Part shown: positions 8,081-31,620 of the stretch, one piece after another | How positions within the stretch are numbered: the first letter of the stretch is position 1 | Layout: each line of letters starts with the position of its first letter | Assembly: GCF_040954835.1 (NCBI RefSeq) | Contig: NC_090709.1 | Location: 40,590,975-40,654,974 of the forward strand | DNA length: 64,000 nucleotides | Reading direction: 5' to 3' | Source of the DNA: Lepisosteus oculatus | Taxonomy: Eukaryota; Chordata; Actinopteri; Semionotiformes; Lepisosteidae | Notes under the pieces: generated by a model | Told to the model about the DNA's origin: nothing | What the model saw: the letters and a program-made list of their open reading frames with translations, nothing else | Databases searched by the model: none | Made by a program: the position numbers and the translations under genes

Positions 8081-8939
8081 AGTGCTGTCTGTTACTCACT
8101 GTACAGATAAATCCTGTTTTTCAGTTGTAGGTGGGCTCCTGAAAAGACTGCTGAGCCCAGAAGCAGGAGTGTGATTAGAGAGGAGGGACAGGTGAGGGGA
8201 GCTGTTTAAATCACCTGTGTGAGGCTGTCAGGGACTGTGGGGCAGGGAGACACTGGGGGGCTGTGGCGCGGGGAGACACTGGGAGGAAGAGCTCAGTTTT
8301 GTCCCCATGAGGTACCTCTCACTCATCCCTGCTGCAGCTCTGTGTGTGATTCACAGGACAGAAGTGTGGAGCTCACAGAGCAGAGGAAGTCAGAAACTCC
8401 TGCTGGAGCTCCTGACTCAATAGTCTGTACAAACAGGCAGAGAAACGACATGGAGCCCTTTTCTTGGATAGGAGCTGTACTATCTAGTTGGTAAACTATT
8501 TTTTCCTTGATTAGTTATTTTGTGATGTTTGCTGTTTATTCAGTGGAACTGTAGTCCCTTACAGTTTATTGAAGTGCTTTACTACATATTCACTGTGCTG
8601 GTCTGTCACATACACATACTCTCTCCTGAATATTTCCTGGAAATTCACTGTACTGGTTAGTCACTTTGACAGATATTCACTGGCATGTTCATCACTCAAC
8701 TAGTTGGTTTCTTTCCTGAGTGATTACTGACTTGACTCTACTGGGTCTTCACCATAACTGTTCAACACTAAGCCAGTGTTTGTCTTCAATGGTTATTGTA
8801 CAAGTTCCCTGTAATTACTAGTCAATCTCTGTCCTGGATATTCAATGTACTCGATGTTTATAGTAATTAATTACTAAGCTAATCATTGTCTTGATGAGAG
8901 CAGGGGGTGTTGGGGTACCAGCTGGCTGAGAGCAAGAGT

Positions 8940-9740
8940 TGGGGTATCAGGCTACCGAATTATTTGTGGGAGAACTTCAAGTCAAGAGGGAGAACAGAAG
9001 CCCCAACATCGGAGCTCTCTCCCAGTCGGACACCAGGAGCCCTGACGCCCTCATCCTCCCCCATCGGCTCCATCTCTCCGGTCGTCTCGTCTGGACGTCG
9101 GGCTCCAGGATCTCAGGGAAGGTTCCCTCCTCCCAGCCCGGCTCAGGCCTGAGGAGTCTGGAAGATCTGGGAGAAGCCAACAGGAAGAAACTCCTCCTGG
9201 ACCTCGGCTCTGGGAGGAGCCCAGCGCCTGGACCCCCTGCAGAGACTCGGGCTGACCAGGAGGAGGAGCCTGGCGCCTGGACACCCAGGGGTGTTGGAAC
9301 AAAGAGGAGGAGGAGGAGGAGCCCAGTTGTGCCACAACAAGGAAGAGGAGCCCAGGGGTGTCAGAACCTCCGCAGGGGGAGAGAGAGCCTGTGGACAACA
9401 CGCCTGTGTTTCTCCAGGACGGGTCTCCAGAACAGCAGCTCTGGACCGGAGCAGTCGGGACTCGGTGGAGCACAGGCTGCCTTCAGGCCTGTTTATTCCC
9501 ACCAGACACAGCTCCTGCAGGAGGAACCTGACCCTGCAGGCAGGGAGAGGTCAGGGAGGCTGTGGGACAGGTGGGGAGGGACTGGGAATGGGGGAGCTGC
9601 CCCCCATGTTGGGAAATGGGACCAGGCAGCCAGGGGTGAAGTGGGGCAACACTGCACCAGGCTGGAGAGGGCACCCCCAGACCTGCAGTTAGAGGACAGG
9701 GGAACAGGGGACCCCCCATCAGCCAGGCAGGTGAGTCTCT
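8940..9740 (+). repeat. Palindrome block C (G-rich), left copy
   Basis: A G+C-rich block with long overlapping open frames in several phases on both strands, none resembling a known protein. Its inverted partner is at 30.11-30.76 kb. The open frames reflect low stop density, because equivalent frames in the partner are interrupted at different places. Confidence 0.75.
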
Positions 9741-10145
9741 CCTTCGCTGGATTTCCCTCACAGGTGATGCTGGTCTTCATCGGTCCTGCAGGGATCCAAT
9801 CAGACCAATCTGGGATTGACGCACTCCCAGGGGGCAGAGCAGGAGTTGTCTTGGGAAGACAGACAGGATGTCCCGACTGCCTTCCTCCTCCTCCCTGCCT
9901 GCTGGAGCCTGTGAGGATGAGGATGATCTTGATTAAGAGCTGCCGATGCCCCTGGTCCAGGTGGAGATCTGGAGCCCCAAGAGGACTCATCCTGTCGGGG
10001 TGTCAGGGGGTGACCCTCAGGGCTGTGTCCTGACCTCCTGCCGTCTCTCGCCCACAAGATCAAGGTCAGTGTGGTGTTGACACTACACTCTCGAACCCGA
10101 GTCCAACACCAGCCTCCAGCACGAGCCCAAGGTCAGGTTAGTCTT
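9740..10145 (+). repeat. Palindrome block D, copy 1
   Basis: About 400 bp beginning CTCCTTCGCTGGATTTCCCT and ending near an ACACTACACTCTCGAACCC word. A second direct copy lies at 11,415-11,850 and a single inverted copy at 29,640-30,110, so the left arm underwent an extra internal duplication after, or independently of, palindrome formation. Confidence 0.8.
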
Positions 10146-11099
10146 GTCACTCCTGTGTCACACTCGGGGCATGAACACACAGCCCTACTAGTGAGAGGAG
10201 AACCGTTAATATTCTACCAGTATTGATATTCGTACTTGAGGAAATATTGTTAGTTTTATTAACAGTATTAATATTAGTTGGCTTTTTATTGGCACCACTT
10301 GTACTAGAAGTAGTGTTATTTTTAGCTGGAGCAAGACCAACAGAAGCAGTATTGCTGTTATTTTCTGCAGGAGCACAACTGATTGAGCCAGTCTTGTGAA
10401 ATACACCTCTTGTGTGTCTCCTGTGTTCTCCACCATTGTCGTTCCAGTCGACCTCCTCTTGAACCCTCACGGGACTGTGCTGGGACTCTTTATCCCGACT
10501 CCTGGGAGCTTGTATCGGGATCTTGTGAAGAGTCCACCAGGATGGGTTCGGTGACTCCTCAGCACTACCCACGGCCAGCCTCGAGCTGGGTCCCTCGGTT
10601 CTGACGGTCCCGTCTCCTTCAGGGTCTTCCTCCTGATCTCCATGACCGCAGCGCAGATCTTCCCAGCGGCTGTGTGCTGTCGGATCTTCCCACAGTCGTC
10701 ACTGGGCGGAGACCCTCCCTGGAGTTAGAGGATCGCTGGTGTCACCTGGGTGAGTCAGGTGTGGGACGTATCAGAGTACCTTTCTCTGGGGGGGACGGGA
10801 CACAAACTGGGGGACTTTCAGTGTCCCTTCTGTCCACATCCAGAGCACACAGGTGCTGTTTCCTTGCTTTCAGGGCCACTGTGGTCTGCAGAGAGCTGCC
10901 CTTCTCCTCTACACTCTACAGAGCAGGTTACCGAGCCCGGGAGCTGTCCAGGTCTGAGGTCAGTGGGCATGTCAGTTCACAACGCGTATGGGTGGAGATC
11001 GGATATAGGCTGGACTCTCTCTACTGGATTATTTTCCTTAATTCTCCAGGATGTCCAGAGACGAACACTAGGAAGACCGGTGCTGGGAAGACTGGGTAA

Positions 11100-13600
11100 T
11101 TGGAATTGAAGTGGGATACTCTCTTGTCCCGTATTTTCCATGATGTCCAGAGGGTGACCGTAGGAAGACCGGTGTGTGTGTGTGGGAAAATTATACCCTC
11201 CCCTGTATTTTCCTTAATTTTCCAAGCTGTCCAGAGGCTGCCGGTGAAGAGCCAGGTATGGATGGGAAGATAAATTGGGAGTTGGGTGCTTCCTTCTGTC
11301 TCTTTTCCTAGTTTTCCAGGATGTTGGTATTGACATTGGACTGTTATTAATTCATTTTCCAGGCTGGCCAGTGGGAAGATGGGTATGGCTGGGAGTTGGG
11401 ATGGAGGTGAGGCTCTCCTTCACTGGCTGTCCCTCGCAGGTGACGCTGGTCTTGCATGATTGGTGCTGATTGGACCAATCTGGATCCACAGACTCCGAGG
11501 GGACAGAGCAGGAGTCGTCTCGAGGAGACATCCAGGGTGTCCTGTTCTCCTGCCTAACGGAGCTTGTGAGGATGACCATGATGACGAAGAGCTGCAGGTG
11601 ACCCTGATTCAGGCTGCTCCTTAGAGACGAGCTCCAGGCGGAGAGCCAGTGGACTCCTCCGATCGGGGCTCCAGGGGGTGACCCTCAGGGCTGTGTCCTG
11701 ACCTCCTGCTGTCTCTCGCCCACAAGATCCTGGTCAGTGTGCTGTTGACACTACACTCTCGAACCCGAGTCCAGCTCGAGCACAAGGTCAGGTTAGTCCT
11801 GTCACTCCTGTGTCCCACTCAGGACATGAACACACAGCCCTACTAGTGAGAGGAGTACAGTTATAAAGTTACTAGTATCGATATTGGAGCCTGGTGAAGT
11901 ATTATTGTTGAATTAACACACAATGTTGAGTGACAGGTGAACGCTGGGCTGAAGACAGATGACCAGGCACAGAGAGACTGCAGAGCCAGACTGCTGCCCT
12001 CAGACACACGAACCAGCTGTCACAGCTGTGCAGCCTACAGCAGCGTGTCCTGGGATGGAGGTGGGATGCTCTCTCCTGGCTCTTTTCCCTTTTCCATTTT
12101 CCAGTAAGTCCGGCGGCTGACACTGGGGAGACATGTATGTATGAAGACTGAACCCTCTCCTGTTTTCTGTTCCTTAATTTTCCAAGATCTCCAGGGGCAG
12201 ACAGTGGAGAGACAAGCATGGCTGGGATAGAGGTTGGATGTTCTCTTATCTTTTCCCTGATTTTCTAGGATGCCCGTAAAAATAACAGTATGGAAGGGGA
12301 GTTGGAATGGAGGTTGACGTTCTCTCCTGTCTCTTTTCCCTAATTTTCCAGGATGTCCAGTGGGAAGACGGGTATGGATAGGAAGATAGAATGGGGATTG
12401 ATGGTCTCTCCTGTCTCCAGCAGCGTCTCCTGCTCTCTGAGGTCAAACACCAAAATGTCAGGGGTCAAAGGTTAAGATGGACTCCAATGCAGGGACAGAC
12501 AGTGGGGGGGACTAGTGTGGATGGAGGATGATGCTCTATCTTGTGTTCATTGCTGTAGTTTTCCAGAATGGCCAGAGGCAGACAGATGAGTTGTCCAGTG
12601 GCTGACAGTGGGAAGACTGGTATGGATGAAGAGTTGGGATAGAGGTGGGATGCTCTCTCCTGTGATCTTTTCCATTTTCCAGGCTGGCCAGAGGCTGCCA
12701 CTGGGAAGATGGGTATGGCTGGCAGTTGGGATAGAGGTTGGTTACCCTCTCCTGTAATCTTTTTCTCTTCTTTTCTGGGATATCCAAAAGAATTGAAAGT
12801 GGGGAAAATGGATTGGAGTTTGGATTTGGAGGTTGACGTTTTGTCCTGTGATCATTTCTGTTGTTTTCCAGATTGTCCAGTGGCTGACAGTGGGAAGACG
12901 GTATGAAAGAGGTGTTGGGATTGACACTGGACTCATTGGACTGTATTTCCCTTAATTGGCCAGAGACTGATAGTGGGAAGACTGGTATGGATGGAGATTG
13001 AACCCTCTCCTGTAGTCTCGTTCCCTCATTTTCCAGGATATTCTGAGGAAGACTGGAATAGATGGGGTGGTAGACTGGGGTTTGGATGCCGTCTCCTGTT
13101 TCTTTCCCTAATTTTCCGGGATGTCCAGAAAAGTCATTGGGAACACCAGTGTGGTTGGAGGTTGATGCTCAGTCCTGTTCATTTCTGTGGCTTTCCAGAA
13201 TGTCCTGAGGCTGCCAGTGGGAAGACGGGTATGCATGAGGTGTTGGGATAGTGGTTAGCTGCTCTCTCCCTGTTTTTTTTTTCCTTAATTTCCAGGAAAA
13301 GTGCAGAGTCTGACATTGTGTATGAAGCTTGAACCCTGTCCCTAATTTTCCAGGATGTCCACAAGCAGACAGTCGAGAGGCAGGTGTGGTGTTGGGATTG
13401 ATGCTGAACTCTCTCTCCTGTATTGTTGTCCAGAGGCTGCCAGTGGGAAGATGGGTATGGCTGGGAGTTGGGATGGAGGTGAGAAGCTCTTTCCTGTCTT
13501 TCTCTTCCTCCTTGTGGTGGTCTCTCTGCCTGTCTCTGGAGCTGTGTCTTTCTCTCAGTCCAGCTGCTTGTGCTCTGTAAAACACTACACTTTTGCAGTA
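11100..13600 (+). repeat. Degenerate minisatellite (TTTTCCAGGATGTCCAG unit), left arm
   Basis: Repeating words are TTTTCC-AGGATGTCCAG, GTGGGAAGACGGGTATGGATG and TCTCTCCTGT, at about 80-100 bp spacing. TTTTCCAG resembles a splice acceptor, but it is part of the repeat. The inverted counterpart is at 27.88-29.45 kb. Confidence 0.8.
11415..11850 (+). repeat. Palindrome block D, copy 2
   Basis: Direct repeat of 9,740-10,145. It shares the GCAGGTGACGCTGGTCTT-type start, the GAGCAGGAGTYGTC region and the CTCTCGAACCCGAGTCCA end. The copy extends toward an ACACAGCCCTACTAGTGAGAGGAG word, also seen at 10,175-10,200 and, inverted, near 29,655. Confidence 0.8.
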
Positions 13601-13649
13601 TTAAACAGGGCTTTTTGACTGTGGGTTGCAGGTTTGATTCCAGAGGGGG

Positions 13650-16600
13650 ACACAGCCATGATCAGAACAGTCCATCTGAGCAAAGTACCTCACTCTGGGG
13701 TACAAGACTATCAGTGGCTGTACTGTAGGGAGTGGAGTGTTGACAATGGTGTACTCAATTCTCAAGAGTATTGTACCTTAATACACTGACACGTCTGTGT
13801 GTTGAACTGTCACCTGTACTGAGCTTTGTTACTCCCTGAAATAGACCAGGGTGCTGGAGTCTTTCCTATATAATACTTGAACACCCAAACCTGCGTACTG
13901 TACTCCCATCTGCACTGAGCGTTAATACTGGTAATCCTCACACTTGTATAAGTAACTCTCTCCTGTCCTGAGCTTTAATTCTCAATGACAGACCTGTGTG
14001 CTGAGCTATCCTGTGGACTGTGCTGTAATACTGAAACCAGTGTGCTGAACTTGTACTTAATTTAATTCTCACATTGACACACGAGTGCTCAACTCTCACC
14101 TTTACTGTGCTTTCATAGTCAAGTGTGTACTGACCCCTCATGTGGACTGGACTATCATACTTAAACCAGTGTGATACACCTGTGTGCTAAACTCTCACCT
14201 TGACTGTGCTTTAATACTCAAACTCTGTGCTCAGCTCCCACCTGGACTGGACTAAAATAATTAACCCACTGTGCTGATCTCTACCTTGTAAGTGAGCTTT
14301 AATATTCTGTGACACCAGTATGCTTAACTTGAACCTGCAGTGTTCTTTAAATCTCAAATCTGTGTGCTACACTCTTACCTTGATTTGAGTTTTAATACTC
14401 TGCCACACCTGTGGGCTTTTACTCTTGTTTTAATTTTTTTTTTTAATTCTCAGATCTGTGTGGTCAGCTCTGGACTAAAAAACTTAAACCAGTGCTCTTT
14501 CCTGTGCGTCAGTACTGATACCTGTGTGCTCCTCTCAGCTGGAGTTTACTCGACAGAATGGGTACTTTTTTTGTGTTTTTAAATACTTTAACCTGTGTTC
14601 TGAACTCTCGTCTCCACTCCACTGTAATGCGTGGTAATACTTAAACCTGTAAACTTAACTTAATTGTGCTTTTGTACTTCAATCAGTGTCATCAGGTCTC
14701 ACCTGGACTGTACTGAAATACTTAAACCAGGGAGGTGAGATTGTACTGAGCTTTAGTATTCAGAGATGTGTATGCTGAGCCTTCATCTGTAGTGAATTTC
14801 AATACTCAAATCTGTGTGCTACACTCTTACCTCTACTGAGTTTTAATCAATGACACACCTGTACTATAAAAGTGAAACCAGTGTGCTGATCCTTAACTTG
14901 TTAGTGAGCTTTAATCCTCAGTGCCACAGATGTATGCTAAACCTTCACAAGCAGTGTATTTTAATACTCAAATCTGTGTGCTGGAGTGTCAACTGTACTA
15001 TTAGAATACTCAGCCCTGTGTGATGAACTGTAACCTGTACTGTATTGTAATACTCAGGTCTGTGACCTCGCATGTCTGACTGGTACTATTTTGCAATGTA
15101 CTGAGCTTTAATACTTTAAACCAGTGTGCTGATCTCTCACTTGTGTGGATGTGTAATTTTTCAGTGACGTGTATACTGGACCTTCATCTATAGTGTACTT
15201 CAATACTCAAATGTGTGTGTGCTACACTCTTACCTTGACTGAGTTTCAATACTCAACGACACACCTGTGTGCTTTACTCTCACCTTTTTTAAAAAAAAGA
15301 AATCTCAGATCTGTGGTCAGCTCTCAGGTGAACAGTACTAAAATACTTCAGGTGTGCTGAACTCTCCCCTTTACTGTGCTTTAATACTCAAACCTGTGTT
15401 CTCTACTCTCACTGGGCTGTACTGAACTACTTCAGCCAGTGTACTGATCTCTTGTTCAGACTGAACTTCAATACTCAGTGATACAACCATTGCTGAAACC
15501 TTCACCTGCAGTGTACTTGAATACTCAAGTCTCGGTGCTGAAATTTCAACTGTCCTATTATAATACTCAGCCCTGTGTACTGTACTGTGTTGTAATATAT
15601 GGTGTAGTGCAGTGTCACTTGTACACTGTTGTAACAGTCACCCTCTGTCCTGTATTTCAGTGTAACAGTCAGACTTCTGACCACAACTGTCACCTGTGCT
15701 CTAGAGGAATACTCAGCCCTGTGTACTGTGCTGTTCTGTTAAATGTTTCCTATATTGTTGTAATACCCAGACCTGTGAACTGTAGAGTGATGTGGACTGT
15801 CACTTGTATTGTTGCAACAGCCTTGTCTGTTGTATGACAGTGTAATAAACACAGCAGTGTGCCAAACTGTCACCTGTAATCTACTGTAGTACTCAGACCT
15901 GTCTTCTGTGTTGTAATATCTAGCCATGGGTACTGTACTACAAAGTAATAATACACCCAGTGTGCCAAACTGAAACCTGTACTCTACTCTAATACTGAAC
16001 TATCAAACCACAGCTGAAATATTGTTTCCTTTCTTCTCTTTTCAGCAGGGAAGAAACCTGGACTTGTTCCTGTGCTGCCTACAGCTGCTGATGTAGGTTC
16101 CTACTTAAACTGTTGAAACCTTCAGCCCTGTGTACTGTGCTGCTGTAAAATTAAGACTGGGGTGTTGAACTGTCATCTGTACTGTTTGTTAATACTCAGA
16201 CCTCTGTAGTGTATGGTGTTGTAATAGATGGACTAGTCTAGTGAACTGTCACTTGTACTATAATGTAACATTTCTTCTGTACTGTATTTCAGTGTTAAAC
16301 AGGCATTGTGGATTATAGGACAATGTCATCTGTACCCGATTGTAATACTTGGCCTTGTGTACTGTATTATGTGAACGGTTACCATTGTGGGGTTGTAATA
16401 CTTAAAACAGTCACCTGTGCTGTTCTGTAATACTTAACCTGTGTATTGTAAAATGTGGACTAGTCTTCTGAACTGTCACTTTTACACTGTTGTAATTACT
16501 CTTTACCATATTGGTGAGTAAAAGATGATTTTTGATCTGACAATGTCATCTGTACTTGATTGTAATACTCAGCCCTGTGTACTGTTGTAAAATTGACTGG

Positions 16601-17450
16601 TGTCAGTGTCATCTGTACTGTTCCATAGTACTCTGACTGCTGTAGTGTATGGTGTTAAAATGGATAGACTGCTGTACTGAACTGTCACTTGTACTATAAT
16701 GTAACATTTCTTCTGTACTATATTTCAGTGTTAAACAGGCATTGTGGATTATAGGACAATGTCATCTGTATGTGACTGTAATACACAACCCTGTGTGCTG
16801 TATTATGTGAACCATTACTGCTGTGGGCTTGTTATACTCACTTTTGTCTAAACCTGACACCAGTGCTGTTCAGTCTTACTTAAGCCTGTGGAATTTACGA
16901 GTGCAATACATGGACTAGTCTACTAGACCGTCACTTTTACGATGTAATCATTCTCTTTACTGTTTTTGAGTGTAACAGATTTCCATCTGAAACTGTCATC
17001 TGTCGTTGATTAATTGTAAGTCTTAGCCCTGTGTCCTGTACTCCCCTCTGATTGGCTATCTGGATTGTGCTATAATACCCTGGTCTGTGCTTCAGTGTAA
17101 TACTCACCTATGTCTAAAACTGTCACCACACCAGTGTTTATTGTATTGCAGTGTAAGATGCAGACTTGTCCCAAACTGTCACCTGTAGTTGACTGATTGT
17201 AATAGTCAAATGTCTATAATGTACTGTGGTTTGCTGCCTGAGCTCAGGGCTGCTGTTGTAAAACCCCACCTGTCTGCTGTACTCTGAACTGTTATCTGTA
17301 CTGTAGAACAGTTGGGGACTGTTCTATTGGGAAGGGGTTAGACATCTGTACTAAACTCTTACTAGTATTTTAATCCTCCATTCTCTATTCATCAGTATGG
17401 TGCTGGAATGGACTAACTGGCCTTTTTTTTAAGCTTTAGCTTTTGAGATG
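13650..17450 (+). repeat. Long degenerate ~55-60-bp array, left arm
   Basis: Roughly 60 diverged copies built from CTGTGTGCTGAACTGTCACC, TGTACTGT and TTTAATACTCA words. The copy around 15.9-16.1 kb contains a TTCTCTTTTCAGCAGGGAAGAAACC insert that is mirrored near 25.49 kb. Inverted partner at 24.38-27.72 kb. No coding potential. Confidence 0.85.
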
Positions 17451-17469
17451 TTGACCTGTTCCTGGGTAC

Positions 17470-18480
17470 TATATTGTGAACAGTTGGTGTTTTACATCAC
17501 TGCTTGGTGAGGCTTCAACTGCAGCCTCTTTTTCCCCACCCCTGGGTGCTGCACGTTAATAAAACCACTGTGCTGGAGCTGTTCAAACAGGGAACAGGAG
17601 ACCACACAGGCCCACCCCTGAGAGGTGGGATGGGGGAATGAAGTCAGGTAAGTGTGTTTCAGAGAGGGGGAGGTGTTTTCAGGTTTGGTTGGTGTAGAGG
17701 GAGAGACTTTGTCTGGTACAGTCTTGGTGTTCAGGCACAATTCCTTTTTTTCTGGTTGAGGATTATCGCATTTTGTTTTTTTGCCTCATTTTTCCCTACC
17801 CAATGGGAACAGGAACACGCACGGCCACAGTTCTGTTCTGTGGTCATCAGGAAGTGGACTTGTTTCCAGGGGGCACTCCGATCTCTTGGGTGTTCTTTTG
17901 TGTTGTGTGGGGGGTGGGGATGGACCCTAGATGTGTTTTTAAGGTCATAACGCTCCCTGATTTAACTGCTCTGAGCTGTGACAGGGTTATTGGAGAGGTG
18001 TGTGACTCCTGGCTGGAGTTGTGCTCCAGGACAGAGCTCTGCGTGGGGTCTATGTGCCGGGAGAAGGAATAGGTCTCCTGGAGGAAACGTAGCCTGTGAG
18101 CAGCAGGAGCTGTATACAAACACACCACCCCTCTGTCTGAAAGGTGAGAGAGCTGACTGAGCTGTGCGTGAAGCCAGTAAGTACGGGGGAGACTGAATAT
18201 TAATCCACCTGCTGCCTCTGGATACGAGCGATAGAGGTTGAGCAGGAGCTCTTAACTGTTCAAGAGGGAGAGAGCAGGTCACTATTCCACCGAGACAGTC
18301 TGCTTTCTTTATAATCTAACACACCACCTTGATCTTGGCTCCCTGTTGCAGTCATCCACTCCAGGCTGGACTGGTCTTGCACTGAGAGATACAGGTGCGG
18401 CAGTGGAGGAGTGTTTAAACTGGGCCAAGGGAGGGGTACAGTCTCCACCCTCTGTTACTCTCTCACTGGGACTGTCCTGC
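17470..18480. repeat. Palindrome unique block, outer part, left arm
   Basis: Non-repetitive sequence mirrored at about 23.28-24.24 kb. It contains the 60-aa open frame (17,978-18,160, +) that is kept in the other arm. Stops and indels in the surrounding frames make a protein doubtful, and no domain is recognisable. Confidence 0.65.
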
Positions 18481-18495
18481 TGCAGGACTTCATGA

Positions 18496-18606
18496 ACTAC
18501 ATTTCCCAGCAGGCACTGAGGATGATGGTAGCCAATAGGCTGCCTCCCCTGGGTTAATGAGGCTCAGCTGTTCTCCAGGTGGAGCCTGCAGCTGGTGTAT
18601 ATAAGG
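18496..18606 (+). promoter_or_regulatory. Promoter-like module P1 (ZNF143-type, CCAAT, TATA), left arm
   Basis: ACTACATTTCCCAGCAGGC at 18496-18514 is close to the ZNF143/Staf-binding consensus (ACTACAATTCCCAG…). A CCAAT box follows at 18532-18536 and a TATATAAG box at 18598-18605. Order and spacing fit a plus-strand pol II promoter pointing at the palindrome centre. All three elements are kept in the right-arm copy. Confidence 0.55.
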
Positions 18607-18609
18607 AGG

Positions 18610-19460
18610 GCTCAGCTCCTGCAGAGGGGTGGAAGGTGGAGGCAGGGGTCTGTTCAGGTAGTTGGACTTGTTGGTGGGAAGAGGACATCTGAGCTGCAGA
18701 GAAACTGGCAGCAGTTTTAAGAAAGGAAGAGATGGAGGGACAAGCTGGGTGGTTCTTGGCAAACTAGGAGCTGTGATGGGGGCTGGGTTCAGGTTTTATT
18801 AATCTCTTCCTGAATCAGTCCTCACCCCTGGTAGCAGGATCTGTGTTCCTGCTGTTTGAAGGCCAGTGGGGGGGGCTCTGGGGTGAAGGCAGGGCCAGTG
18901 TTTCTCTTTCCTCTCAGTGGAGGCTCAGCAGGAGCCCTCATGAACCTCTAGAACTAGACTGGGCAGGGGCCCTTATTTCTTCCTGGGCTTGTTTCTCAGG
19001 GACGAGGGATGGATGTGTGCTGGTGACCCTCTCTCATTTGACACCCACCCTGTAGTCAGACCCTCAGGAAGAGGGCTCAGCCGGAGACTCATCACTGGTT
19101 TTTCTCCCCATCTTTTTTAGCTGGGAGGGGTCGAGGGGCTCACCTGGGCCCAGTCCTCCAGTGCAGGAGGCCCAGCGGGGCAGCTCTGGGCACAAACACT
19201 CACAGCCACAAGGTGAGGGATCGCAGTGCTCTTTATTCACAGCGAGGGACCCAGCAGGCCAGAAGCCACAAGACAGACCCTCGCTCTTACCTGGAGCCAC
19301 CACCAGCTTCAAACCAGGCCTGTGGCAAGAAAGCCAGCACTCCCAGTTCAGACCTTCTCCTCTTCCGACACAGCAGCAGAGCTCTGAAGCTCTTCTCTCC
19401 TGCTCTGCTCAGCACAACCACTCTCTTCCCCAGCCAAGGCCGGACTGAAGGGCTCTGCTG
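18610..19460. other. Region between convergent promoter-like modules, left arm
   Basis: About 850 bp of unique sequence between P1 and P2, mirrored at 22.56-23.19 kb with indels. No exon of recognisable family is present. Confidence 0.5.
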
Positions 19461-20939: not shown

Positions 20940-21700
20940 GGAAGATAGGAAAAGTGGAGGTGCCCCTCCCCCCCCACTGCTGCCACCACCACCACCTCCA
21001 CTCTGCCCACCCCCCTATTCTCCTGCCCCCTGCCCACCTGCACTCTGCCCCCCCTACTCTCCTCCCTCATGCCCCCCCCCTACTCTCCTCCTAGCCCTGC
21101 CTCCACCCCCCACCTTGGCCTGGGCCCCCCTCCCAACTCCTCTTGCTGCCCCTCAGGCCCAGGCCACCTGCCACTCCTCCTCTCCTCTCACCTCCACCTA
21201 GCCCTGCCCCTGCCTCCTCCACCCCACCACTACCCCTGTCTAACCTAGCCCACTCCTCCATCTAACCCAGTAACTGCTCTGCCCTACCTAGCCCACCCCA
21301 CTACCTGCCTCCTCCACCCCACCTCACCCTAGCCCTACCCCTGTCTACCCTACACCTCACCCCACCCCTGTCTAACCTAGCCCTACTCTACCCTACAGCT
21401 CCCCCTAGCCCACTCCTCCACCCCTCTAATCTAACCCAGTAACTGCCCTGCCCTACCTAGCCCACCCCACTACCTGCCTCTCCCACTAGCCCTGCTCTGC
21501 CTCCTCCACCCCTCCCTTCCTAGCCCACCCCACTACCTGCCTCTCCCCCTAGCCCTGCTCTGCCTCCTTCACCCCTCCCTTCCTAGCCCACCCCACTACC
21601 TGTTCCTGGCCCTGCTCTGCCTCCTCCACCCCCCCACTACCCCCCAGTAATAGCCCCTCCCCATCATCCTGCCCACATACTCACCTCCGATACTCACCTT
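20940..21700 (-). repeat. Pyrimidine-rich core, right arm
   Basis: Complementary partner of the purine-rich core, with CCACCCCACTACC, CCTAGCCC and CTCTGCC words. Extra copies of the CTAGCCCACC unit make it longer than the left core. Confidence 0.85.
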
Positions 21701-21894
21701 GGTTTACTTACCAGGGATCAGCCAGGACTTGAACCCACAACCTCCTGGTCATGAGCGCAGCACCATCTCCACTCCTCCACCTGCTCCAGGCCCAAGGGGA
21801 GAGGGATTCGGTCCGGCTCTTATCCCTCCGTTTCAGCCCTGAACTGGGAAGAAGACCAAGAGCCCACAGGAGCCCCAGACCAACAGAGACACGG

Positions 21895-21948
21895 TGGCTC
21901 AGTGGAAGAGCTCTGCCTCTGTACCAGAGAGGTTGTGGGTTCAAATCC
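21895..21948 (+). repeat. tRNA-like SINE head with intact A and B boxes
   Basis: A-box TGGCTCAGTGG (21895-21905) and B-box GGTTCAAATCC (21938-21948) both match the pol III consensus, with 43-bp start-to-start spacing as in a tRNA gene. A mature tRNA is not claimed because the anticodon stem is irregular. A relative at 22228-22281 has TGGCTCTGTGG and the same B-box at the same spacing. Confidence 0.6.
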
Positions 21949-22227
21949 AGGGAGAAACTAGCTTGTTTTATTCAATTTAATTCTTGAAAACAGAGACATG
22001 TTGATAAATAGAGACACTGAGATCATGTACTTTTCTTACCAACCTCAGGTCCCACCTGGGATTCGAACTCACAACCTCCCAGTCACGAGCACAGCACCAT
22101 CTCCACTCCTCCACCTGCTCCTGTCCTGAGAGGGGATGCCATCGCTCTGCCTTTTACTGCTCAGTCTGGAACCCTGAGCCGGGAAGAGCAAGAGCCCACA
22201 GGAGCCCCAGCCTGCAGAGAGACACGG

Positions 22228-22281
22228 TGGCTCTGTGGAAGAGCTCTCGCCTGCTCCCCTCCAGCCTGCAGGTTCAAATCC
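22228..22281 (+). repeat. tRNA-like SINE head, second copy
   Basis: A-box-like TGGCTCTGTGG (22228-22238) and B-box GGTTCAAATCC (22271-22281), 43 bp apart. Mirrored on the minus strand at about 19,740-19,800 in the left arm. Confidence 0.55.
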
Positions 22282-22481
22282 TCCACAGGACAAGTGTTTT
22301 ACATTGAATTCTCACAAACGTTAACAATGATTATTTTACTCATCCCAGAAGACTATTTGCTCTTTTTTATTTGAATTGGATTTATTTCCCTCGCCGACGG
22401 GCTCAGCTACTTCAGGAACAGCTTCTGTGCCACTCGCTCTGGACGCTGTGAGAGGCAGCAGGTTCAGGCAGCAAGATGTCA

Positions 22482-22560
22482 ACTCCATTTCCCAGCAGGC
22501 CACGCCAAACAATTACCTGGCTAACTGGTGGAAGCCCATTGGTCAGGAGACATTTAAAAA
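22482..22560 (+). promoter_or_regulatory. Promoter-like module P2', right arm
   Basis: ACTCCATTTCCCAGCAGGC (22482-22500), an inverted CCAAT box (22538-22542) and CATTTAAAAA (22551-22560). Mirror copy of P2, pointing away from the palindrome centre. One of the two CCAAT boxes of the left copy is mutated here (CTAACTGG instead of CTCATTGG). Confidence 0.45.
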
Positions 22561-23189
22561 GCAGGCAGCGGAGCCCTTCAGTCCAGCCTTGGCTGGGGAA
22601 GAGAGTGGTTGTGCTGAGCAGAGCAGGAGAAAAGAGCTTCAGAGCTGTTTTGCTGCTGTTGCTGTGTCGGAAGAGGAGAAGGTCTGAACTGGGAGTGCTG
22701 GGAGGACTGGGCCCAGGTGAGAACCTCGACCCCTCCCAGCTAAAAAAGATGGGGAGAACAACCAGTGATGAGTCTCCAAATGAGAGAGGGTCACCAGCAC
22801 ACATCCATCCCCTGTCCCTGAGAAACAAGCCCAGGAAGAAATAAGGGCCCCTGTCCAGTCTAGTTCTAGAGGTTCATGAGGGCTCCTGCTGAGCCTCCAC
22901 GGTGAGAAAAGAGAAACACTGGCCCTGCCTGCACCCCAGGGCCCCCCCCCACTGGCCTTCAAACAGCCGGAACACAGATCCTGCTCCCAGGGGAGAGGAC
23001 TGATTCAGGAAGAGATGAATAAAATCTGAACCCAGCCCCCAGCTTGTCCTTCCATCTCTTCCTTTCTTAAAACTGCTGCCAGTTTCTCTGCAGCTCAGAT
23101 GTCCTCTTCCCACCCCCAAGTCCAACTACCTGAACAGACCCCTGCCTCCACCTTCCACCCCTCTGCAGGAGCTGAGCTCCCGTACCCTC

Positions 23190-23275
23190 CTTATATACAG
23201 CAGCTGAGCCTCATTAACCCAGGGGAGGCAGCCTATTGGCCACCACCATCCTCATGGCCTGCTGGGAAATGTAGT
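23190..23275 (-). promoter_or_regulatory. Promoter-like module P1', right arm
   Basis: Minus-strand copy of P1: the ZNF143-type motif is the complement of 23257-23275, CCAAT the complement of 23235-23239, and TATATAAG the complement of 23190-23197. It points to the palindrome centre, converging on P2'. All three core elements are unmutated relative to the left arm. Confidence 0.55.
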
Positions 23276-23284
23276 TCATGAAGT

Positions 23285-24240
23285 CCTGAAGCAGGACAGT
23301 CCCAGTGAGAGAGTAACAGAGGGTTGAGACTGTACCCCTCCCTTGGCCCATCTTAAACACACTCCTCCACTGCCCCACCTGCATCTCTCAGTGTAAGACC
23401 AGTCCAGCCTGGAGCAGATGACTGCACCAGGGAGCCAAGAGCAAGGTGGTGTGTTATATTGAAAAGAAAGCAGACTGTTGTCTCTGTGGAATAGTAACCT
23501 GCTCTCTCCCTCTTGAACAGTTAAGAGCTCCTGCTCAACCTCTATCGCTCGTATCCAGAGGCAGCAGGTGGATTAATATTCAGTCTCCCCAGTACTTACT
23601 GGCTTCAGTCACAGCTCAGTCAGCTCTCTCCCCTTTCAGATAGAGGGGTGGTGTGTTTGTACACAGCTCCTGCTGCTCACAGGCTACATCTCCTCCAGGA
23701 GACCTATTCCTTCTACCGGCACACAGACACCACGCAGAGCTCTGTCCTGGAGCACAACTCCAGCCAGGAGTCACACACCTCTCCCATAACCCTGTCACAG
23801 CTCAGAGCAGTTAAATCAGGGCGCATTACAACCTTAAAAACACATCTAGGAGCCCCCACACAGTCACAACACAAAAGAGCACCCAAGAGCTGGGACTGGT
23901 CCCTCAATACACAAGTCCACTTCATGATGACCACAGAACAGGAGAACTCTGGACGTGCATGTTCCTAATCCGTTAGGAAAGGAAAAATGAAGCCAAACGG
24001 AACCCAAAGATGGGCTAGAACTGGAAAAAAGGGAGTTGTGCCCAAACAGTAGGACTGTTCCAAAAAGAGTCTTCCTCCTCTCTCTGAGACACCACTCCCC
24101 TGCCTCCATTCCCCCACCCCACCTCACAGGGGGGCCCTGGGGGGTCTCATGTTCCCTGTTTGAACACCTCTATCACCTGTGGGGAAAAAACAGAAGGACT
24201 CCAGCTCCAGCCTCACCCAGTGAGAGGGTGTAAAACACAG
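23285..24240. repeat. Palindrome unique block, outer part, right arm
   Basis: Mirror of 17.47-18.48 kb, including the minus-strand 60-aa open frame at 23,616-23,798. No recognisable protein domain. Confidence 0.65.
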
Positions 24241-24379
24241 GAACAAGCTCAGGCTCAAAGAGGCTCAAGCTTAGGAAAGGACATTGTCCACTGCAGCACC
24301 ATACTGGGGAGTGGACAGGTAGGGATTAAAATAGTAAGAGTAGTACAGCCGTCTGACCCATTCACAACAGAACAGTCCC

Positions 24380-27300
24380 CCAGTGGAGTGTGACAGTACA
24401 GGAGCCAGGTGTGATATTAGAACAGCAGTCCTGAGCCAAGGCAGCAAATCACAGTATTACATTACATACCTTTACATCTTACAATCAGGTACAGGTGAGA
24501 GTTTGGGTCATATATCTGAGTATTACACTACAATACAAATTATAAAGGTGACAGTTCACATGACACTATTGACAGTAGACTAGTATAGACAGTATTGAGT
24601 ACAGGTGACAGATTTAGACAGAAGTGAGTATTACACTGCAGCACAGTCCACAGGTTTAGGTCTTACAACACAATACAGGTAACAGAGCACAGGGCAGTAC
24701 AGGACACAGGGCTGTGTATTACAACACAATACAGGTAACAAAGCAGTACTGTACTCTAGGCTAAGAATTACAATCAACTACAGGTGACATTTTCATATAG
24801 AAATCTGTTACACTCAAATACAGTAGAGAGGGTGATTGTTACATGGTGAAAGTGACAGTTCAATAGAATAGTCCATATCTTACAGTAGTACAATACCCAG
24901 GCATGAGTAAGAGAACAGGACAGATAACAGTTCCAAACAAAAGTGAGTATTACAACACACCAGAGGTAACAGTTCACATAATACAGTACAGAGGGCTGAG
25001 TATTACAGTCAAGTACCAGTGATGTTTTCTGTTAGTCCACACTCCATATGTCACACTGAAATACAGTACAGAGCAAGTGTTACATTATAGTACAGGTGAC
25101 AGTTCAGTATGCCAGTCCATCTGTTACAACACCATACACTACAGAGGTCTGAGTATTAACAAACAGTACAGTTGACAGTTCAACACACCAGTCTTAATTT
25201 TACAATAGTCCACAGGACAGTGTTACAGTTAAGCACAGATGACATTGTCAGATAGTTCACTCTGCATGTGTTACACTGAAACAGTACAGAGATCTGAGTG
25301 TTACAACGTTGGACAAGTGACAGTTCAGTATACAACACCGTACACTAGAGCAGGCTGCATCCTGAAAAACAGTACAGATGACAGTTCAATACCCCAGTCT
25401 TAATTTTACAACAGCACAGTGTTACAACACAGTTGAAGTAGGAATCTACATCAGCAGCTGTAGGCAGCACAGGAACAAGTCCAGGGTTCTCCCCTGCTGA
25501 AAAGACAAGAAAGGAAACATTTCAGCTGTGGCATAACAGTTCAGTCTTTTAATGATTACAGGTGACCGTTTGTACTACCATATAATAACCTGACCCGTGT
25601 ACCAGTTAATATGGAGGATATTACAACAATACAGATGACAGATACAGTGCTGATGTTTACAATAGATTACAGGTGACAGTTGACATTACAGAACAAAAGG
25701 GTATTATTACACACAAGAAGTAACAGTTCACAAATTCTAATGTGGAGTACAGCTCATTTTTTGTTTGATCAGTTTTAGAGAAAGTTTGTTTTTAAGCCTT
25801 AAAATCCCGACCAGGTTTTCGGTGTGCTTTTTGCCCTCAGTCTAGTTCTACGCCATCAACTTGCTGTTAAAGTAACATACAACACAGAGGTCTGGTATTA
25901 CCATCAAGTACAGCTGAATGTGTCGAGCAGAAGTCTGAATTTTACACTGAAATACAGGTTGACGAGGGACTGTTACAAAAGGGTACAAGTGACAGTTCAG
26001 TACACCACTCCCTCTACTCTAACAGCACAGTACACAGGGCTGAGTATTAGAATAGGACAGTTGAAGTTTCAGCACCCAGCCTTGTGTATTAAAGTACACT
26101 GCCAGTGAAGGTCTCAGTAATGGTTGTAGTACGGAGTAATAAAGTTCAGTCTGAACAAGAGATCAGCACACTAGGTTAAGTACTTTAGTACAGTCCAAGT
26201 GAGGAGTTGAGCACACAGATCTGAGAATTATTTATTTTTATTTTTTTTAAAGGTGAGAGGTGTGTCAATGACTACTGAAACCCAGGCAAGGTAAGAGTGT
26301 AGTACAGATGAGTATACAAGTACTCTATAGATGAAGGTTCAGCATACACGTCCCTGAATATTACAGATCCGTACAAGTGAGTTCAGCAGACTGGTTTAAG
26401 TATTAAAGCTCAGTACTGGTTAGAGTTCAGAACAAGTCTGAGCACTGTAAAATAGTACCAGTCAGACATGCGAGGTCACAGACCTGAGTATTACAACAGT
26501 ACAGGTTACAGTTCATCCCACAGGGCTGAGTATTCTAATAGTACAGTTGACAGTCCAGCACACATACTTGAGTATAAAAATACACTGCTTGTGAAGGTTT
26601 AGCATACATGTGTGTACAAGTGAGTATTAAAGCTCAATTACAGTACAAGTTAGGGATCAGCACACTGGTTTCACATTTATAGTACAGCAAAGATGAGTAA
26701 AGCACACAGGTGTGTCATTGAACACAACTCCATAGAGGTAGGAGTGTAGCACACACGAGTATTGAAGTACACTACAGATGAAGGCTCAGCATACACATCT
26801 CTGAGTATTGAAGCTCAATACAAGCACACCTCCCTGGTTTAAGTATTTCAGTACAGTCCAGGTGAGATCTGACGACAGATTGAAGTATTAAAGTACAGTC
26901 AATGTAAGAGTTAAGTTTACAGGTTTAAGTATTACCACACATTACAGCTCAGTGGAGAGGAGATTTCAGAACACAGGTTTCAGTATTTAAAACACAGAAA
27001 AAAGCACTGGTTTAAGTTTTTTAGTCCAGAACTGACCACACCGATCTGAGAATTAAAAAAATTTAAAACACGAGTGTAAAGCACACAGGCACAACATGAA
27101 GTATTAAAACTCAATCAAGGTAAGAATGTAGCACACAGATTCAAGTATTGAAGTACGCTACAGATGAAGGTTCAGCATACACGTCTCTGAAAATTAAAGC
27201 TCACTTACAAGTTAAGGTTCAGCACAGTGGTTTAAGTATTTTAGTCCAGTCCAGGTGAGAGCTGAGCACAGAGTTTGAGTATTAAAGCCCACTTACAACT

Positions 27301-27725
27301 TGGAGTTCAGCACACTGGTTTAAGTATGATAGTCCAGTCCACATGAGGGGTCAGTACACACTTGAGTATTAAAGCACAGTAAAAGGTCACAGTTCAGCAC
27401 TCATGTGTCAATGTGAGAATTAAATTAAGTACAAGTTCAGCACCCTGGTTTCAGTATTCCAGCACAGTCCACAGGATAGCTCAGCACACAGGTCTGTCAT
27501 TGAGAATTAAAGCTCAGGACAGGAGAGAGTTACTTATACAAGTGTGAGGATTACCAGTATTAACGCTCAGTGCAGATAGGAGTACAGTACACAGGATTAA
27601 GTGTTCAAGTGTTATATAGGAAAGACTTCAGCACACTGGTATTTATCATTGAGTAACAAGGCTCAGTACAGGTGAAAGTTCAACACAGACACGTCAATGT
27701 ATTAAGGTGCAATACTCTTGAATTG
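24380..27725 (-). repeat. Long degenerate ~55-60-bp array, right arm
   Basis: Complement of the 13.65-17.45 kb array: GAGTATTA, CAGTACAGGTGACAGTT and CAGCACACAGG words. It is about 450 bp shorter than its partner. Confidence 0.85.
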
Positions 27726-27879
27726 AGTACACCATTGTCAGCACTCCACTCCCTACAGTACAGCCACTGATAACCATGATCAGAACAGTCCATCTGAGCA
27801 AAGTACCTCACTCTGGGGATACAAGACTGTGTCCCCTCTGGAATCAAACCTGCAACCCACAGTCAAAAAGCCCTGAAAA

Positions 27880-29450
27880 ATAGACAGGAGAGGTTTCAAG
27901 TCTTCATGCATACCCGTCTTCCCACTGGCCGCCTCTGGGCAGCCCGGAAAATACAGGATCAATCCCAACACCACATCCATACCTGCCTCTTGACTGTCTG
28001 CTTGTGGACATCATGGAAAATTAGGGAACAAGAACACAGGACAGGGTTCAAACTTCATACAAACCCGTCTTCCACAATGTCAGGCTCTGCACTTTTCCTG
28101 GAAAATAAGGAAAAAAAACAGGGAGAGAGCAGCTAACCTCTATCCCAACTCCTCATACATACCTGTCTTCCCACTGGCAGCCTCTGGACATCCTGGAAAA
28201 CTACAGAAATGAAAACGGGAGAGAGCATCAACCTCCATCCACACTGGTCTTCCCACTGGCTGTTTTCTGGACATCTCTAGGATGTCTAGCTAGACATCTG
28301 TCTAGCAGCATCTGAACTCCAATCCGTCTTCCCACTGTCAATTCTTTTGGATATCCTGGAAGTTAGGGAAAAAATACAGGAGAGGGTAACCAACCTCTAT
28401 CCCAACTCTTCATCCATACTGGTCTTCCCACTGTCAGCCACTGGACATTCTGGAAAACTACAGCAATGATCACAGGACAGAGCATCAACCTCCATCCACA
28501 CTGGTCTCCCCACTGTCTGCCCCTGCATTGGAGTCCATCTTGACCTTTGACCCCTGACTTGTATATGAGCTCAGAGAGCAGGAGACGCTGCTGGAGACAG
28601 GAGAGCATCAATCCCCATTCTGTCTTGCTCATCCACACTGGTCTTCCCACTGTCAGCCACTGGACATGCTGGAAAATAAGAAAAGAGACAGGAGAGAGTA
28701 TCAACCTCCATTCCAACTCCTATTCCATACCAGTCTCTCCACTGGTAATTTTACAGGCATCCTAGAAAATCAGGGAAAAGATTATAGGAGAAAACATCCA
28801 ACCTCTATCCCAGCCATGCTTGTCTCTCCACTGTCTGCCCCTGGACACCCTGGAAAATAAGGAAAAGAAACGGGAGAGGGTTTAATCTTCATACAGCCCA
28901 TCATCTTCCCACTGCCTGCCACTGGACAGCCTGTCTTCCCATTGGATATTCTGGAAAACCACAGAAATGATCACAGGACTTCATCCACACTGGTCTTCCC
29001 ACTGACTTCCCCTGGATTGAAGTCCACCTTGACCTTTGACCCCTGACTGTTTGACCTCAGAGAGCAGGAGACGCTGCTGGAGACAATGGGGATTGATGGT
29101 CTCCTCTATTCATACCCATCTTCCCACTGGCAGCCCCTGAACATCCTGGAAAATGAGAAAAGAGAGACAGGAGTGAGCATCCAACATCCATTCCAACTCC
29201 TCCTCCATACCCGTCTTCCCACTGTCCATTTTATGGACATCCTAGAAAATCAGGGAAAAGATTCTAGGAGAGAACATCCAACCTCTATCCCAGCCATACC
29301 CATCTCTCCACTGTCTGCCCCTGGACATCCTGGAAAAATAGAGGGAAAAAAAAACAAGGGTTCAATCTTCATACATGCATGTCTTCCCAGTGTAAGCCGC
29401 TGGACTTACTGGAAAATGGAAAAGGGAAGAGAGACAGGAGAGAGCATCCC
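27880..29450 (-). repeat. Degenerate minisatellite (CTGGAAAAT unit), right arm
   Basis: Complement of the 11.1-13.6 kb array: CATACCCGTCTTCCCACTG, GGACATCCTGGAAAAT and GACAGGAGAGAGCATC words. Confidence 0.8.
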
Positions 29451-29639
29451 ACCTCCATCCCAGGACACGCTGCTGTAGGCTGCACAACTGTGACAACTGG
29501 TTCCTGTGTCTGAGGGCAGCAGTCTGGCTCTGCAGTCTCTCTGTGCCTGGTCATCTGGCTTCAGCCCAGCGCTCACCTCTCACTCAAGATTGTGTTAATT
29601 CAACAATAACATACTTCACCAGGCTCTTATCAACTAGTA

Positions 29640-30110
29640 ACTTTATAACAGTTCTCCTCTCTCACTAGTAGGGTTGTGTGTTCATGCCCTGAGTGTGACA
29701 CAGGAGTGACAGGACTAACCTGACCTTGTGCTCGAGCTGGACTCGGGTTCGAAAGTGTAGTGTCAACAGCACACTGACCAGGATCTTGTGGGCAAGAGAC
29801 AGCAGGAGGTCAGGACACAGCCCTGAGGGTCACCCCCTGGAGCCCCGATAGGAGGAGAGCCAGTGGACTCCTCGCCTGGAGCTCATCTCTAAGGAGCAGC
29901 CTGAATCAGGGTCGTCTGCAGCTTTTCGTCATCATGGTCATCCTCACAGGCTTCGGTAGGCAGGAGATCAGGACACCCTGGATGTCTCCTCGAGACGACT
30001 CCTGCTCTGTCCCCTCGGAGTCTGTGGATCCAGATTGGTCCGATCAGCACCGATCATGTAAGACCAGCGTCACCTGCGAGGGACAGCCAGTGAAGGAGAG
30101 ACTCACCTGG
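29640..30110 (-). repeat. Palindrome block D, right-arm copy
   Basis: Single inverted copy of the block that is present twice in the left arm. It begins at the ACTAGTAGGGTTGTGTGTTCATG word and ends at GACAGCCAGTGAAGGAGAG. Confidence 0.8.
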
Positions 30111-30760
30111 TCTGCACTCACCTGCCTGGCACCTCGTGCCCTTCGGTGCCGATGGGGTACCCTGTATCCTGCGCTGACCAGTCAAGAACATCCTCTTGTC
30201 CTCTACCCGCAGGTCTGGGGGTGCCCTCTCGTGCCTGGTACAGGGTCTGACCTGGCTCCTGGTGGGAATAAACATGCCTGAAGGCAGCCTGTGCTCCACC
30301 AAGTCCCGACTGCTCCGGTCCAGAGCTGCTGTTCTGGTGACCCGTCCTGGAGAAACACAGATGTGTTGTCCACAAGTGTGTCGTCTCCCCTTCCTCACCT
30401 CGTTCAGAGGTTCCGAGACCCCTGGGCTCCTCCTCCTCCTCCTGGCCAGCCCGAGTCTCCGGGGGGGGGTCCAGGCGCTGGGCTCCTCCCAGAGTCGAGG
30501 TCCAGGAGGAGTTTCTTCCTGTTGGCTTCTCCCAGATCTTCCAGACTCCTCAGGCCTGAGCCAGGCTGGGAGGAGGGAACCTTCCCTGAGATCCTGGAGA
30601 CCGACGTCCAGACGAGACGACCGGAGAGATGGAGCCGATGGGGGAGGATGAGGGCGTCAGGGCTCCTGGTGTCTGACTGGGAGAGAGCTCCAATGTTGGG
30701 GCATCTGTCCTCCCTCTTGAATTTTCCTCCTTCAGGATCCCACAGATCATGGTTGAGTGT
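30110..30760 (-). repeat. Palindrome block C, right copy
   Basis: Inverted counterpart of 8.94-9.74 kb. The minus-strand frame 30,550-30,750 repeats nearly the same residues as the plus-strand frame at 8,939-9,150. Confidence 0.75.
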
Positions 30761-30829
30761 GTTCAGTGTCACACAGGAATGTTCTTTGGCTTCAACTGTC
30801 TGGTACCCAACTCCTCCAGCTCTCACCTG

Positions 30830-31620
30830 GCTGGTTCCCCACTCCTCTCACCTTTACAGTGAACACGGAGAGACCCACTGGTTTAGTGACTCACCATTGC
30901 AGTGAACACCCAGCACAGAGACTATGTAGTAAAATAATTAATCACAAAATAAACTGAAGTTTTTTTGGATGGCCATTGCTGAACACCCAGCATAGTGAAG
31001 ATGCAATAATTATTCGTAGAAGGCAGTGACTGGTTTAGTGTCCACCCATTACAGTGAACATTCTGTACAGAAAATATTTAATGAAATGATAAACAATGAC
31101 ATCAACAGGTGTAGTGACTTACCATTTTAGAGAATATCTTGTAAACCATTACTGTGAATTTCCAACACAGAAAGTTATCGATGACAGTGAATACCCAGTA
31201 CAGGGCCTATCAGTCACAGAGAATAATTACAGTGCTTATCTGTTACAGTGAATACCAGTTAGTGAATAATTGTAATTATCTTTTACAACAAGATACCAGT
31301 AACAGTGACTGGCCATTACAGTGAATAAGAGTGAGTATTCAGGACAAAGACTGTTGTGACTAACCATTACTATCCAGTAAACTGAATATCCAACAAAAAC
31401 TGCCTGGATCAGTGACTAACCATTAGAGAGAAACTCCAGCACAGTGAAGACACAAAAAGATATTTAGGAAAGAAACTGGTTTAGTGACCTACCATCCCAG
31501 TGCATTCCCAGCATGGGAAATAGGCAAATGAACTAATTATTCAGGAAGCAGACTGGAGAGACTGTCTGGTTTAGTGGTTAACAAGTACAGAGAATATCCA
31601 GAAAAGGAGTCCTTGTTAAT
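30830..31620 (-). repeat. Degenerate array at outer end of right arm
   Basis: Diverged words complementary to TTCACTGTACTGG (for example CAGTGAATACCCAGTACAG). This matches the arrays at 7.6-8.1 and 8.5-8.9 kb and marks the approximate limit of detectable symmetry. Confidence 0.65.

What the first reader, a model, noticed from the sequence alone, without database searches (positions are those of the whole stretch)
8500..31620. A ~23-kb palindrome with ~11-12 kb arms and only a 26-bp spacer
The two arms are collinear in opposite orientation all the way from a 10-bp perfect stem at the centre. They carry substitutions and indels, and the left arm has a private ~1.7-kb internal duplication. Palindromes this long with so short a spacer are usually unstable, and divergence of the arms implies it has persisted. 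If transcribed through, it would give a very long hairpin RNA. The palindrome contains none of the 121-bp or CA-rich repeats that crowd both flanks, so it is a distinct unit, perhaps a giant foldback-type element or an inverted segmental duplication. An assembly artefact from hairpin reads is the main rival, but independent divergence argues against it.
Basis: seen in the sequence. Interest (0 to 1): 0.88.

Follow-up and report, generated by a model that had tools for sequence, protein, structure and literature searches.

The report
Family of giant palindromes beside immune-receptor genes
The 22-kb mirror-image stretch of DNA is real and is one of at least 22 related palindromes between immune-receptor genes on one spotted gar chromosome, apparently kept mirror-symmetric by copying of sequence between their arms.

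Summary
The palindrome is real: arms 8979-20899 and 20900-30723 align at 89.5% over 8,903 columns around a 12-bp stem and 24-bp spacer. Weaker collinear homology continues outward. The genome is spotted gar, chromosome C14.

It is not alone. Core searches gave 22 (+,-) pairs on C14 at 38.9-42.3 Mb, plus three incomplete relatives. Two of these searches scored 40 of 63 and 40 of 55 candidates, so counts are lower bounds. Arms come in two types about 77% alike: 12 B/B, 6 A/A, 4 A/B palindromes. Arms of one palindrome diverge from another palindrome in step, and divergence along an arm is patchy.

Best reading: one old inverted duplication near convergent Ig-receptor genes, spread by segmental duplication, kept palindromic by arm-to-arm gene conversion and shuffled between palindromes. 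A foldback transposon is unlikely: flanks are shared too and no transposase was found. An assembly artefact is unlikely, but no reads were seen. The left arm's extra 1.7 kb is not private: 5 of 7 measured palindromes have one long and one short arm. Function is unproven.

The parts
8979..20899 (+). Left arm of palindrome P1
   Evidence: Global alignment with the right arm, 89.5% over 8,903 columns
20900..30723 (-). Right arm of palindrome P1
   Evidence: Same alignment; the split at 20899/20900 is nominal, inside the spacer
20876..20887 (+). Central 12-bp stem, left half
   Evidence: Exact inverted match
20888..20911 (.). 24-bp central spacer
   Evidence: Between the two stem halves
20912..20923 (-). 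Central 12-bp stem, right half
   Evidence: Exact inverted match
19334..20456 (+). Core segment, left arm (type A); the query that found the family
   Evidence: 95.8% to 21573-22701; 77 matches, all listed on C14
21573..22701 (-). Core segment, right arm (type A)
20457..21340 (.). Centre: G-rich purine strand on the left flips to C-rich on the right
   Evidence: GC skew +0.64 / -0.60 in the 500 bp either side; same sign pattern in 7 of 7 palindromes read
8979..9268 (+). Outer module of the left arm, sharply bounded at 8979 and strongly conserved in other palindromes
   Evidence: 95.5% to 30433-30723; many matches start at query position 880-881 = 8979; alignment of 7 arms
30433..30723 (-). Outer module of the right arm
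9729..11404 (+). Extra 1.7-kb segment of the left (long) arm, bounded by direct copies at 9729-10264 and 11405-11918
13656..13709 (+). 54-bp micro-inversion in the left arm relative to the right arm and other palindromes
   Evidence: Reverse complement matches the right arm with one 1-bp gap; opposite-strand hits in many other arms
8575..8951 (+). Decayed outward continuation of the left arm
   Evidence: 67% over 332 columns with 30799-31148, 0 of 400 background segments as good
30799..31148 (-). Decayed outward continuation of the right arm
32924..33457 (-). Ig-like exon of the flanking receptor gene, pointing towards the palindrome
   Evidence: tblastn to the other Ig exons; weak sub-threshold Pfam V-set
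62076..62459 (-). Ig V-set exon of the flanking receptor gene
   Evidence: Pfam V-set E 5.8e-9, above cut-off
57974..58372 (-). Putative transmembrane exon of the receptor gene
   Evidence: Hydrophobic stretch in the open frame; no Pfam family over its cut-off

Best explanation
P1 is one member of a family of at least 22 homologous palindromes on spotted gar chromosome C14, lying among Ig-superfamily receptor genes. SHOWN by sequence: the mirrored anatomy, the common centre region and outer module, two arm types, A/B hybrids, patchy arm divergence, homologous and mirrored flanks. INFERRED: (1) an inverted duplication in the 3' intergenic region of convergent Ig-receptor genes made the ancestral palindrome once; (2) segmental duplications and inversions within the cluster copied it, with its flanks, many times; (3) arm-to-arm gene conversion kept the two arms of each palindrome alike while different palindromes drifted apart; (4) conversion or crossover between palindromes swapped arm segments, giving A/B hybrids and mosaics such as P1, whose left mid-arm is closer to arms of two other palindromes than to its own right arm; (5) central asymmetry (short unequal spacers, indels, centre loss at 45.55 Mb) may be what keeps the copies tolerable. 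The palindromes thus act as repeated recombination substrates in an immune gene cluster; no selected function is shown.
For: 22 core pairs: 19 of 19 pairs in (+,-) order, 3 more with the type-B query. 29 of 29 outer-end hits lying near those 19 centres are on the expected side and strand (39 of 91 listed matches entered). All five further cores fetched give +/- arms. Arm types: 12 B/B, 6 A/A, 4 A/B; 10.4 mixed pairs expected by shuffling, 4 seen, P 0.0053 (palindromes are related, so nominal). Mid-arm of P2 against the genome, all 22 candidates scored: own other arm 94%, then arm pairs 89/85, 74/74, 73/74. P1/P2 inner 3.1 kb: 329 sites join the arms of one palindrome, 5 and 2 the alternatives. 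Divergence in columns free of self-repeats is not uniform: P1 chi2 118, P2 239, 12 df each. P1 left mid-arm 95% to 45549921+ and 40462731- but 85% to P1R. Flanks shared and mirrored. Ig gene blocks within 20 kb of a centre: 7 of 7 point inward. Long/short arm asymmetry shared by 5 of 7 palindromes.
Against: In the core the arms of P1 and of P2 do not group together; sister arms group in 4 of the 7 palindromes read, so conversion inside a palindrome is not the only or always the strongest force. The fall of identity with distance from the centre is not significant in unique columns (P1 rho -0.53 p 0.06; P2 -0.34 p 0.25). Gene blocks 20-60 kb away show no orientation bias (12 inward, 12 outward) and one of 7 palindromes with V-set genes on both sides has them in the same direction. 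The four-arm site counts include stretches where P1 and P2 hardly align (45-50%). Six of the 19 centres have no outer-end hit. Independent inverted duplications at one fragile centre would give some of the same patterns. No reads, other individuals or other gar species were available.
Confidence: 0.78

Rival explanations
1. Giant foldback-type transposable element with about 10-kb inverted repeats that inserted many times.
For: Arms are 63-70% self-repetitive, as in Foldback/Galileo/Tetris elements (recalled, and paper listing); many copies share a core and an outer module whose edge lies at 8979.
Against: Sequence outside the ends is shared and mirrored too; the ends of P1 and P2 differ by about 500 bp; listed copies of core, mid-arm and outer end are on one chromosome; no protein family over its cut-off in 10 arm ORFs and no codon signal in the core; I saw no target-site duplication by eye at the P1 ends.
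Confidence: 0.06
2. Each palindrome arose separately by an inverted duplication at the same fragile centre (hairpin or template-switch hotspot), without gene conversion.
For: Centres are G-rich and quasi-palindromic; arm pairs are equally distant from other palindromes, which separate origins also predict; central spacers of A-type palindromes keep one orientation.
Against: At least 22 repeats of one event needed; long/short asymmetry shared between palindromes; divergence patchy within an arm pair, 98.7% against 81% in unique P2 columns; A/B hybrids.
Confidence: 0.1
3. Assembly artefact (hairpin/missed-adapter reads or collapsed haplotypes).
For: Palindromes are a known long-read error; no reads could be checked here.
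Against: Arms differ at about 10% of aligned sites with hundreds of indels, far above read-polish error or usual heterozygosity (general knowledge); 22 palindromes with different arm divergences and hybrids; the 264-kb region holds no N.
Confidence: 0.04

Closest known systems
Long inverted repeats of Caenorhabditis kept by gene conversion (Zhao et al. 2007, PMC1803023; abstract, Results part 1 of 2 and Discussion read)
   Same: Inverted repeats between oppositely oriented paralogous genes; the repeat structure is better conserved than its sequence; pairs duplicate as units.
   Different: There: arms of a few hundred bp to about 2 kb, three worm species. Here: about 10-12-kb arms, 22 or more paralogous copies in one vertebrate gene cluster, two arm types with hybrids.
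Arm-to-arm converted palindromes of mammalian sex chromosomes (listings and abstract starts; otherwise recalled)
   Same: Large inverted repeats whose arms stay alike by conversion; ectopic exchange between palindromes.
   Different: Those arms are usually above 99% identical, on sex chromosomes, with testis genes; here arms are 76-99% by stretch, beside Ig-receptor genes; sex linkage of C14 not tested.
Palindrome of the mammalian IgH 3' regulatory region (D'Addabbo et al. 2011, PMC3068965; abstract read)
   Same: Palindrome 3' of immune genes whose self-matching, not sequence, persists between species.
   Different: About 3-kb arms with a 3-kb spacer carrying enhancer HS1.2; no homology tested or claimed; here spacers of 24-35 bp in P1 and P2 and no known enhancer.
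Inverted repeats of the amphioxus VCBP2/5 Ig V-type cluster (PMC2632668; 12 of 20 passages seen)
   Same: Haplotype-specific inverted repeats and large palindromes enriched in an Ig V-domain gene cluster.
   Different: No family of homologous palindromes with a common centre was described in the passages seen.
Foldback / Galileo / Tetris transposons (listing; details recalled)
   Same: Long, internally repetitive inverted arms.
   Different: No transposase, common ends or target-site duplication found; flanks co-duplicated.

Membership tests
Gene-conversion palindrome (as on mammalian sex chromosomes) | Long inverted arms about a short spacer | tested here: met
   P2
Gene-conversion palindrome (as on mammalian sex chromosomes) | Arms of one palindrome more alike than to homologous palindromes | tested here: inconclusive
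   Met outside the core for P1/P2 and for the P2 subfamily mid-arm; in the core met for 4 of 7 palindromes; not met for the P1 left mid-arm and outer end
Gene-conversion palindrome (as on mammalian sex chromosomes) | Patchy arm divergence with long identical tracts | tested here: met
   Heterogeneity chi2 118 and 239 (12 df); longest identical runs 155 and 342 against 99th percentiles of 100 and 120 in shuffles
Gene-conversion palindrome (as on mammalian sex chromosomes) | Concerted evolution between individuals or species | not testable with these tools
   No second individual or gar species is held
Foldback-type transposon | Common defined ends with target-site duplication | tested here: not met
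   Ends of P1 and P2 differ; flanks homologous beyond the end; no duplication seen by eye at P1
Foldback-type transposon | Internally repetitive long inverted repeats | tested here: met
   63-70% of each arm self-similar
Foldback-type transposon | Transposase in some copy | tested here: inconclusive
   No family over cut-off in 10 P1 ORFs; other copies not scanned
IgH 3'RR-like regulatory palindrome | Enhancer in or beside the palindrome | not testable with these tools
   No expression or chromatin data

The most novel reading that the evidence does not exclude
The palindromic form itself is maintained for a purpose. Convergent Ig-receptor genes are transcribed towards a centre where the non-template strand is G-rich on both sides (skew flips from about +0.65 to -0.65 in 7 of 7 palindromes read), so R-loops or cruciforms there would stop converging polymerases and invite breaks that are repaired from the other arm or another palindrome. 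The cluster would carry 20 or more built-in, self-renewing recombination hubs that invert, duplicate and shuffle immune receptor genes, a germline counterpart in form to switch regions and the IgH 3' palindrome. Transcription through the centres is assumed, not shown.
Probability: 0.15. Interest if true: 0.93.

Novelty: new variant of a known kind. Interest (0 to 1): 0.8.

Why it matters
Palindromes with arms this long and spacers this short are held to be unstable outside special settings such as sex chromosomes. A family of at least 22 copies in one vertebrate receptor cluster, with A/A, B/B and A/B arm pairings in one genome, gives a natural series for measuring arm-to-arm conversion, exchange between palindromes, decay and centre loss, and for asking whether such palindromes drive the growth of immune gene clusters. 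In the held library the search 'spotted gar' + 'palindrome' gave 2 papers, one mention each; searches returned mostly sex-chromosome work. Subscription papers are not held.

Tried and rejected
Coding arms: 10 arm ORFs against Pfam gave no family over its cut-off, two weak matches below it; no codon periodicity in the core (A 27/37/39, B 39/35/35; indels 32 not and 23 multiples of three). Structured RNA: no Rfam match at gathering scores and no tRNA in the window. Steady fall of arm identity from the centre: suggested by raw profiles, not significant in unique columns. One ~121-kb tandem duplication carrying P1 and P2: not supported, since at that offset only the palindromes match collinearly and other matches are scattered cluster repeats. 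My first idea that 8979 is a conversion-tract edge is weakened because many palindromes share the same edge; a conserved module is as likely. My first reading of the 1.7-kb segment as a plain right-arm deletion was dropped. In one search one V-set hit within 60 kb had been left out; one search corrects 12/11 to 12/12.
Full report
Where it is. The window is G000:C14:40590975-40654974 of a 1.2-Gb, 813-contig assembly. A search with chained Ig exon translations found proteins named Lepisosteus oculatus on a contig of 60,006,905 bases, the length of C14, so this is spotted gar. The right flank carries Ig-like exons on the minus strand (33-62 kb), one with a Pfam V-set match above cut-off (62076-62459, E 5.8e-9); the others score below cut-off. 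Named relatives are 'CD276 antigen-like' and 'uncharacterized protein'.

The observation. The palindrome is there. Identity along the arms is 97-99% beside the core, 95-97% at 18-20 kb, 76-84% in repeat-rich stretches and 97% at 9.0-9.25 kb. In columns without self-repeats divergence is still not uniform (P1 chi2 118, P2 239, 12 df) and the longest identical runs exceed shuffles. Outside 8979/30723 collinear homology at 67% continues, though part of that flank is an old repeat also seen at 114-115 kb.

A second palindrome. In 264 kb of C14 the arms match a second palindrome, P2, about 121 kb away, arms 130797-142265 and 142266-152278 in window-relative coordinates, 90.5% over 9,134 columns, spacer about 35 bp. 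In the inner 3.1 kb P1L-P1R is 94.9%, P2L-P2R 98.0% and the four cross pairs 83-84%; within about 0.2-2.2 kb of the centre all four arms are about 97% with star-like differences, and beyond that P1 and P2 part quickly while each stays palindromic; 329 sites join arms of one palindrome, 5 and 2 the alternatives, many of them where P1 and P2 hardly align. In a better aligned mid-arm piece of 294 columns, P1L-P1R is 94%, P2L-P2R 78%, cross pairs 70-74%, 36 sites within and 2 across.

The family. The core query found 77 matches, those listed all on C14 (40 of 63 candidates scored); 38 of its 40 long matches form 19 pairs, each (+,-), about 1-2 kb apart. A type-B query (40 of 55 scored) added three pairs, one of them completing a piece unpaired. 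The outer end (40 of 54 scored) and a mid-arm piece (40 of 56) also lie on C14 around these centres; 29 of 29 outer hits near the 19 centres have the expected strand, while 6 of the 19 centres have none. Incomplete relatives: near 45.55 Mb (outer and mid-arm pieces, no listed core: centre probably lost), near 58.18 Mb (outer and mid-arm pairs, one listed core arm) and near 43.24 Mb (one core arm and flank). Only one search scored every candidate (22 of 22), again all on C14; unscored candidates elsewhere are not excluded.

Arm types. Fourteen arms of seven palindromes fall into type A (95-99%) and type B (89-99%), 76-79% apart; 41.924 Mb has one of each. By the identities the 22 pairs are 12 B/B, 6 A/A and 4 A/B. 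Shuffling predicts 10.4 mixed pairs, P(4 or fewer) 0.0053, nominal because copies are related. Sister arms group in 4 of the 7 trees; P1, P2 and the hybrid do not. P1's left mid-arm is 95% like arms of the 45.55- and 40.456-Mb palindromes but 85% like its own right arm, and its outer end behaves alike (96 and 94% against 81%). A mid-arm query from P2 shows arm pairs moving together: 94 (own other arm), 89/85, 74/74, 73/74. Together these fit conversion inside palindromes plus exchange between them.

Not a transposon. The flank outside the palindrome (5200-7500) matches many of the same sites in mirrored orientation, for example 45544230+ and 45556380- at 91 and 90%; a short part of that query is a repeat found on other contigs too. 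So the units copied were larger than the palindrome. The outer module starts at 8979 in many copies, with 72-80% homology outside it in several and 92% in others: a conserved module of unknown role.

Setting. Seven of seven Ig gene blocks within 20 kb of a centre point inward; from 20 to 60 kb it is 12 in, 12 out. Of seven palindromes with V-set hits within 60 kb on both sides six are mirrored, four convergent and two divergent. In seven of seven centres read the plus strand is G-rich on the left and C-rich on the right. Five of seven palindromes with both arms measured have one long and one short arm, which favours one ancestral palindrome copied as a unit.

Verdict. Known kind (a palindrome held by gene conversion), new variant: a dispersed, mosaic family in an immune-receptor cluster. 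Mechanism steps are inferred; function is open.

Noticed in passing
C14, whole length: A 66-residue part (23-88) of the Ig exon at window 59019-59438 occurs in scores of copies from 3.5 to 58 Mb; all 150 scored matches (of 396 candidates) are on C14, as if the chromosome carried its own dispersed Ig-like repeat.
   Followed up: no
C14 43.88/43.94, 53.71/53.77, 55.36/55.41, 57.76/57.82, 58.51/58.57 Mb: Five near-identical divergent V-set gene pairs, each 58-62 kb apart, repeated along C14.
   Followed up: no
window 13656-13709: 54-bp micro-inversion in the left arm relative to the right arm and many other arms, like a template-switch event.
   Followed up: partly
window 8979-9268 and copies: A GC-rich block of about 225-290 bp nearly invariant in 7 arms, with sharp edges and no shared open frame.
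   Followed up: partly
window 61884-62483 and 68560-69158 to the right: A second inverted Ig gene pair: V-set exons 100% identical in protein on opposite strands about 6.6 kb apart.
   Followed up: no
window 38772-44277 and 54941-57393: Very large tandem arrays of 40-bp (138 copies) and 66-bp (37 copies) units in the right flank.
   Followed up: no
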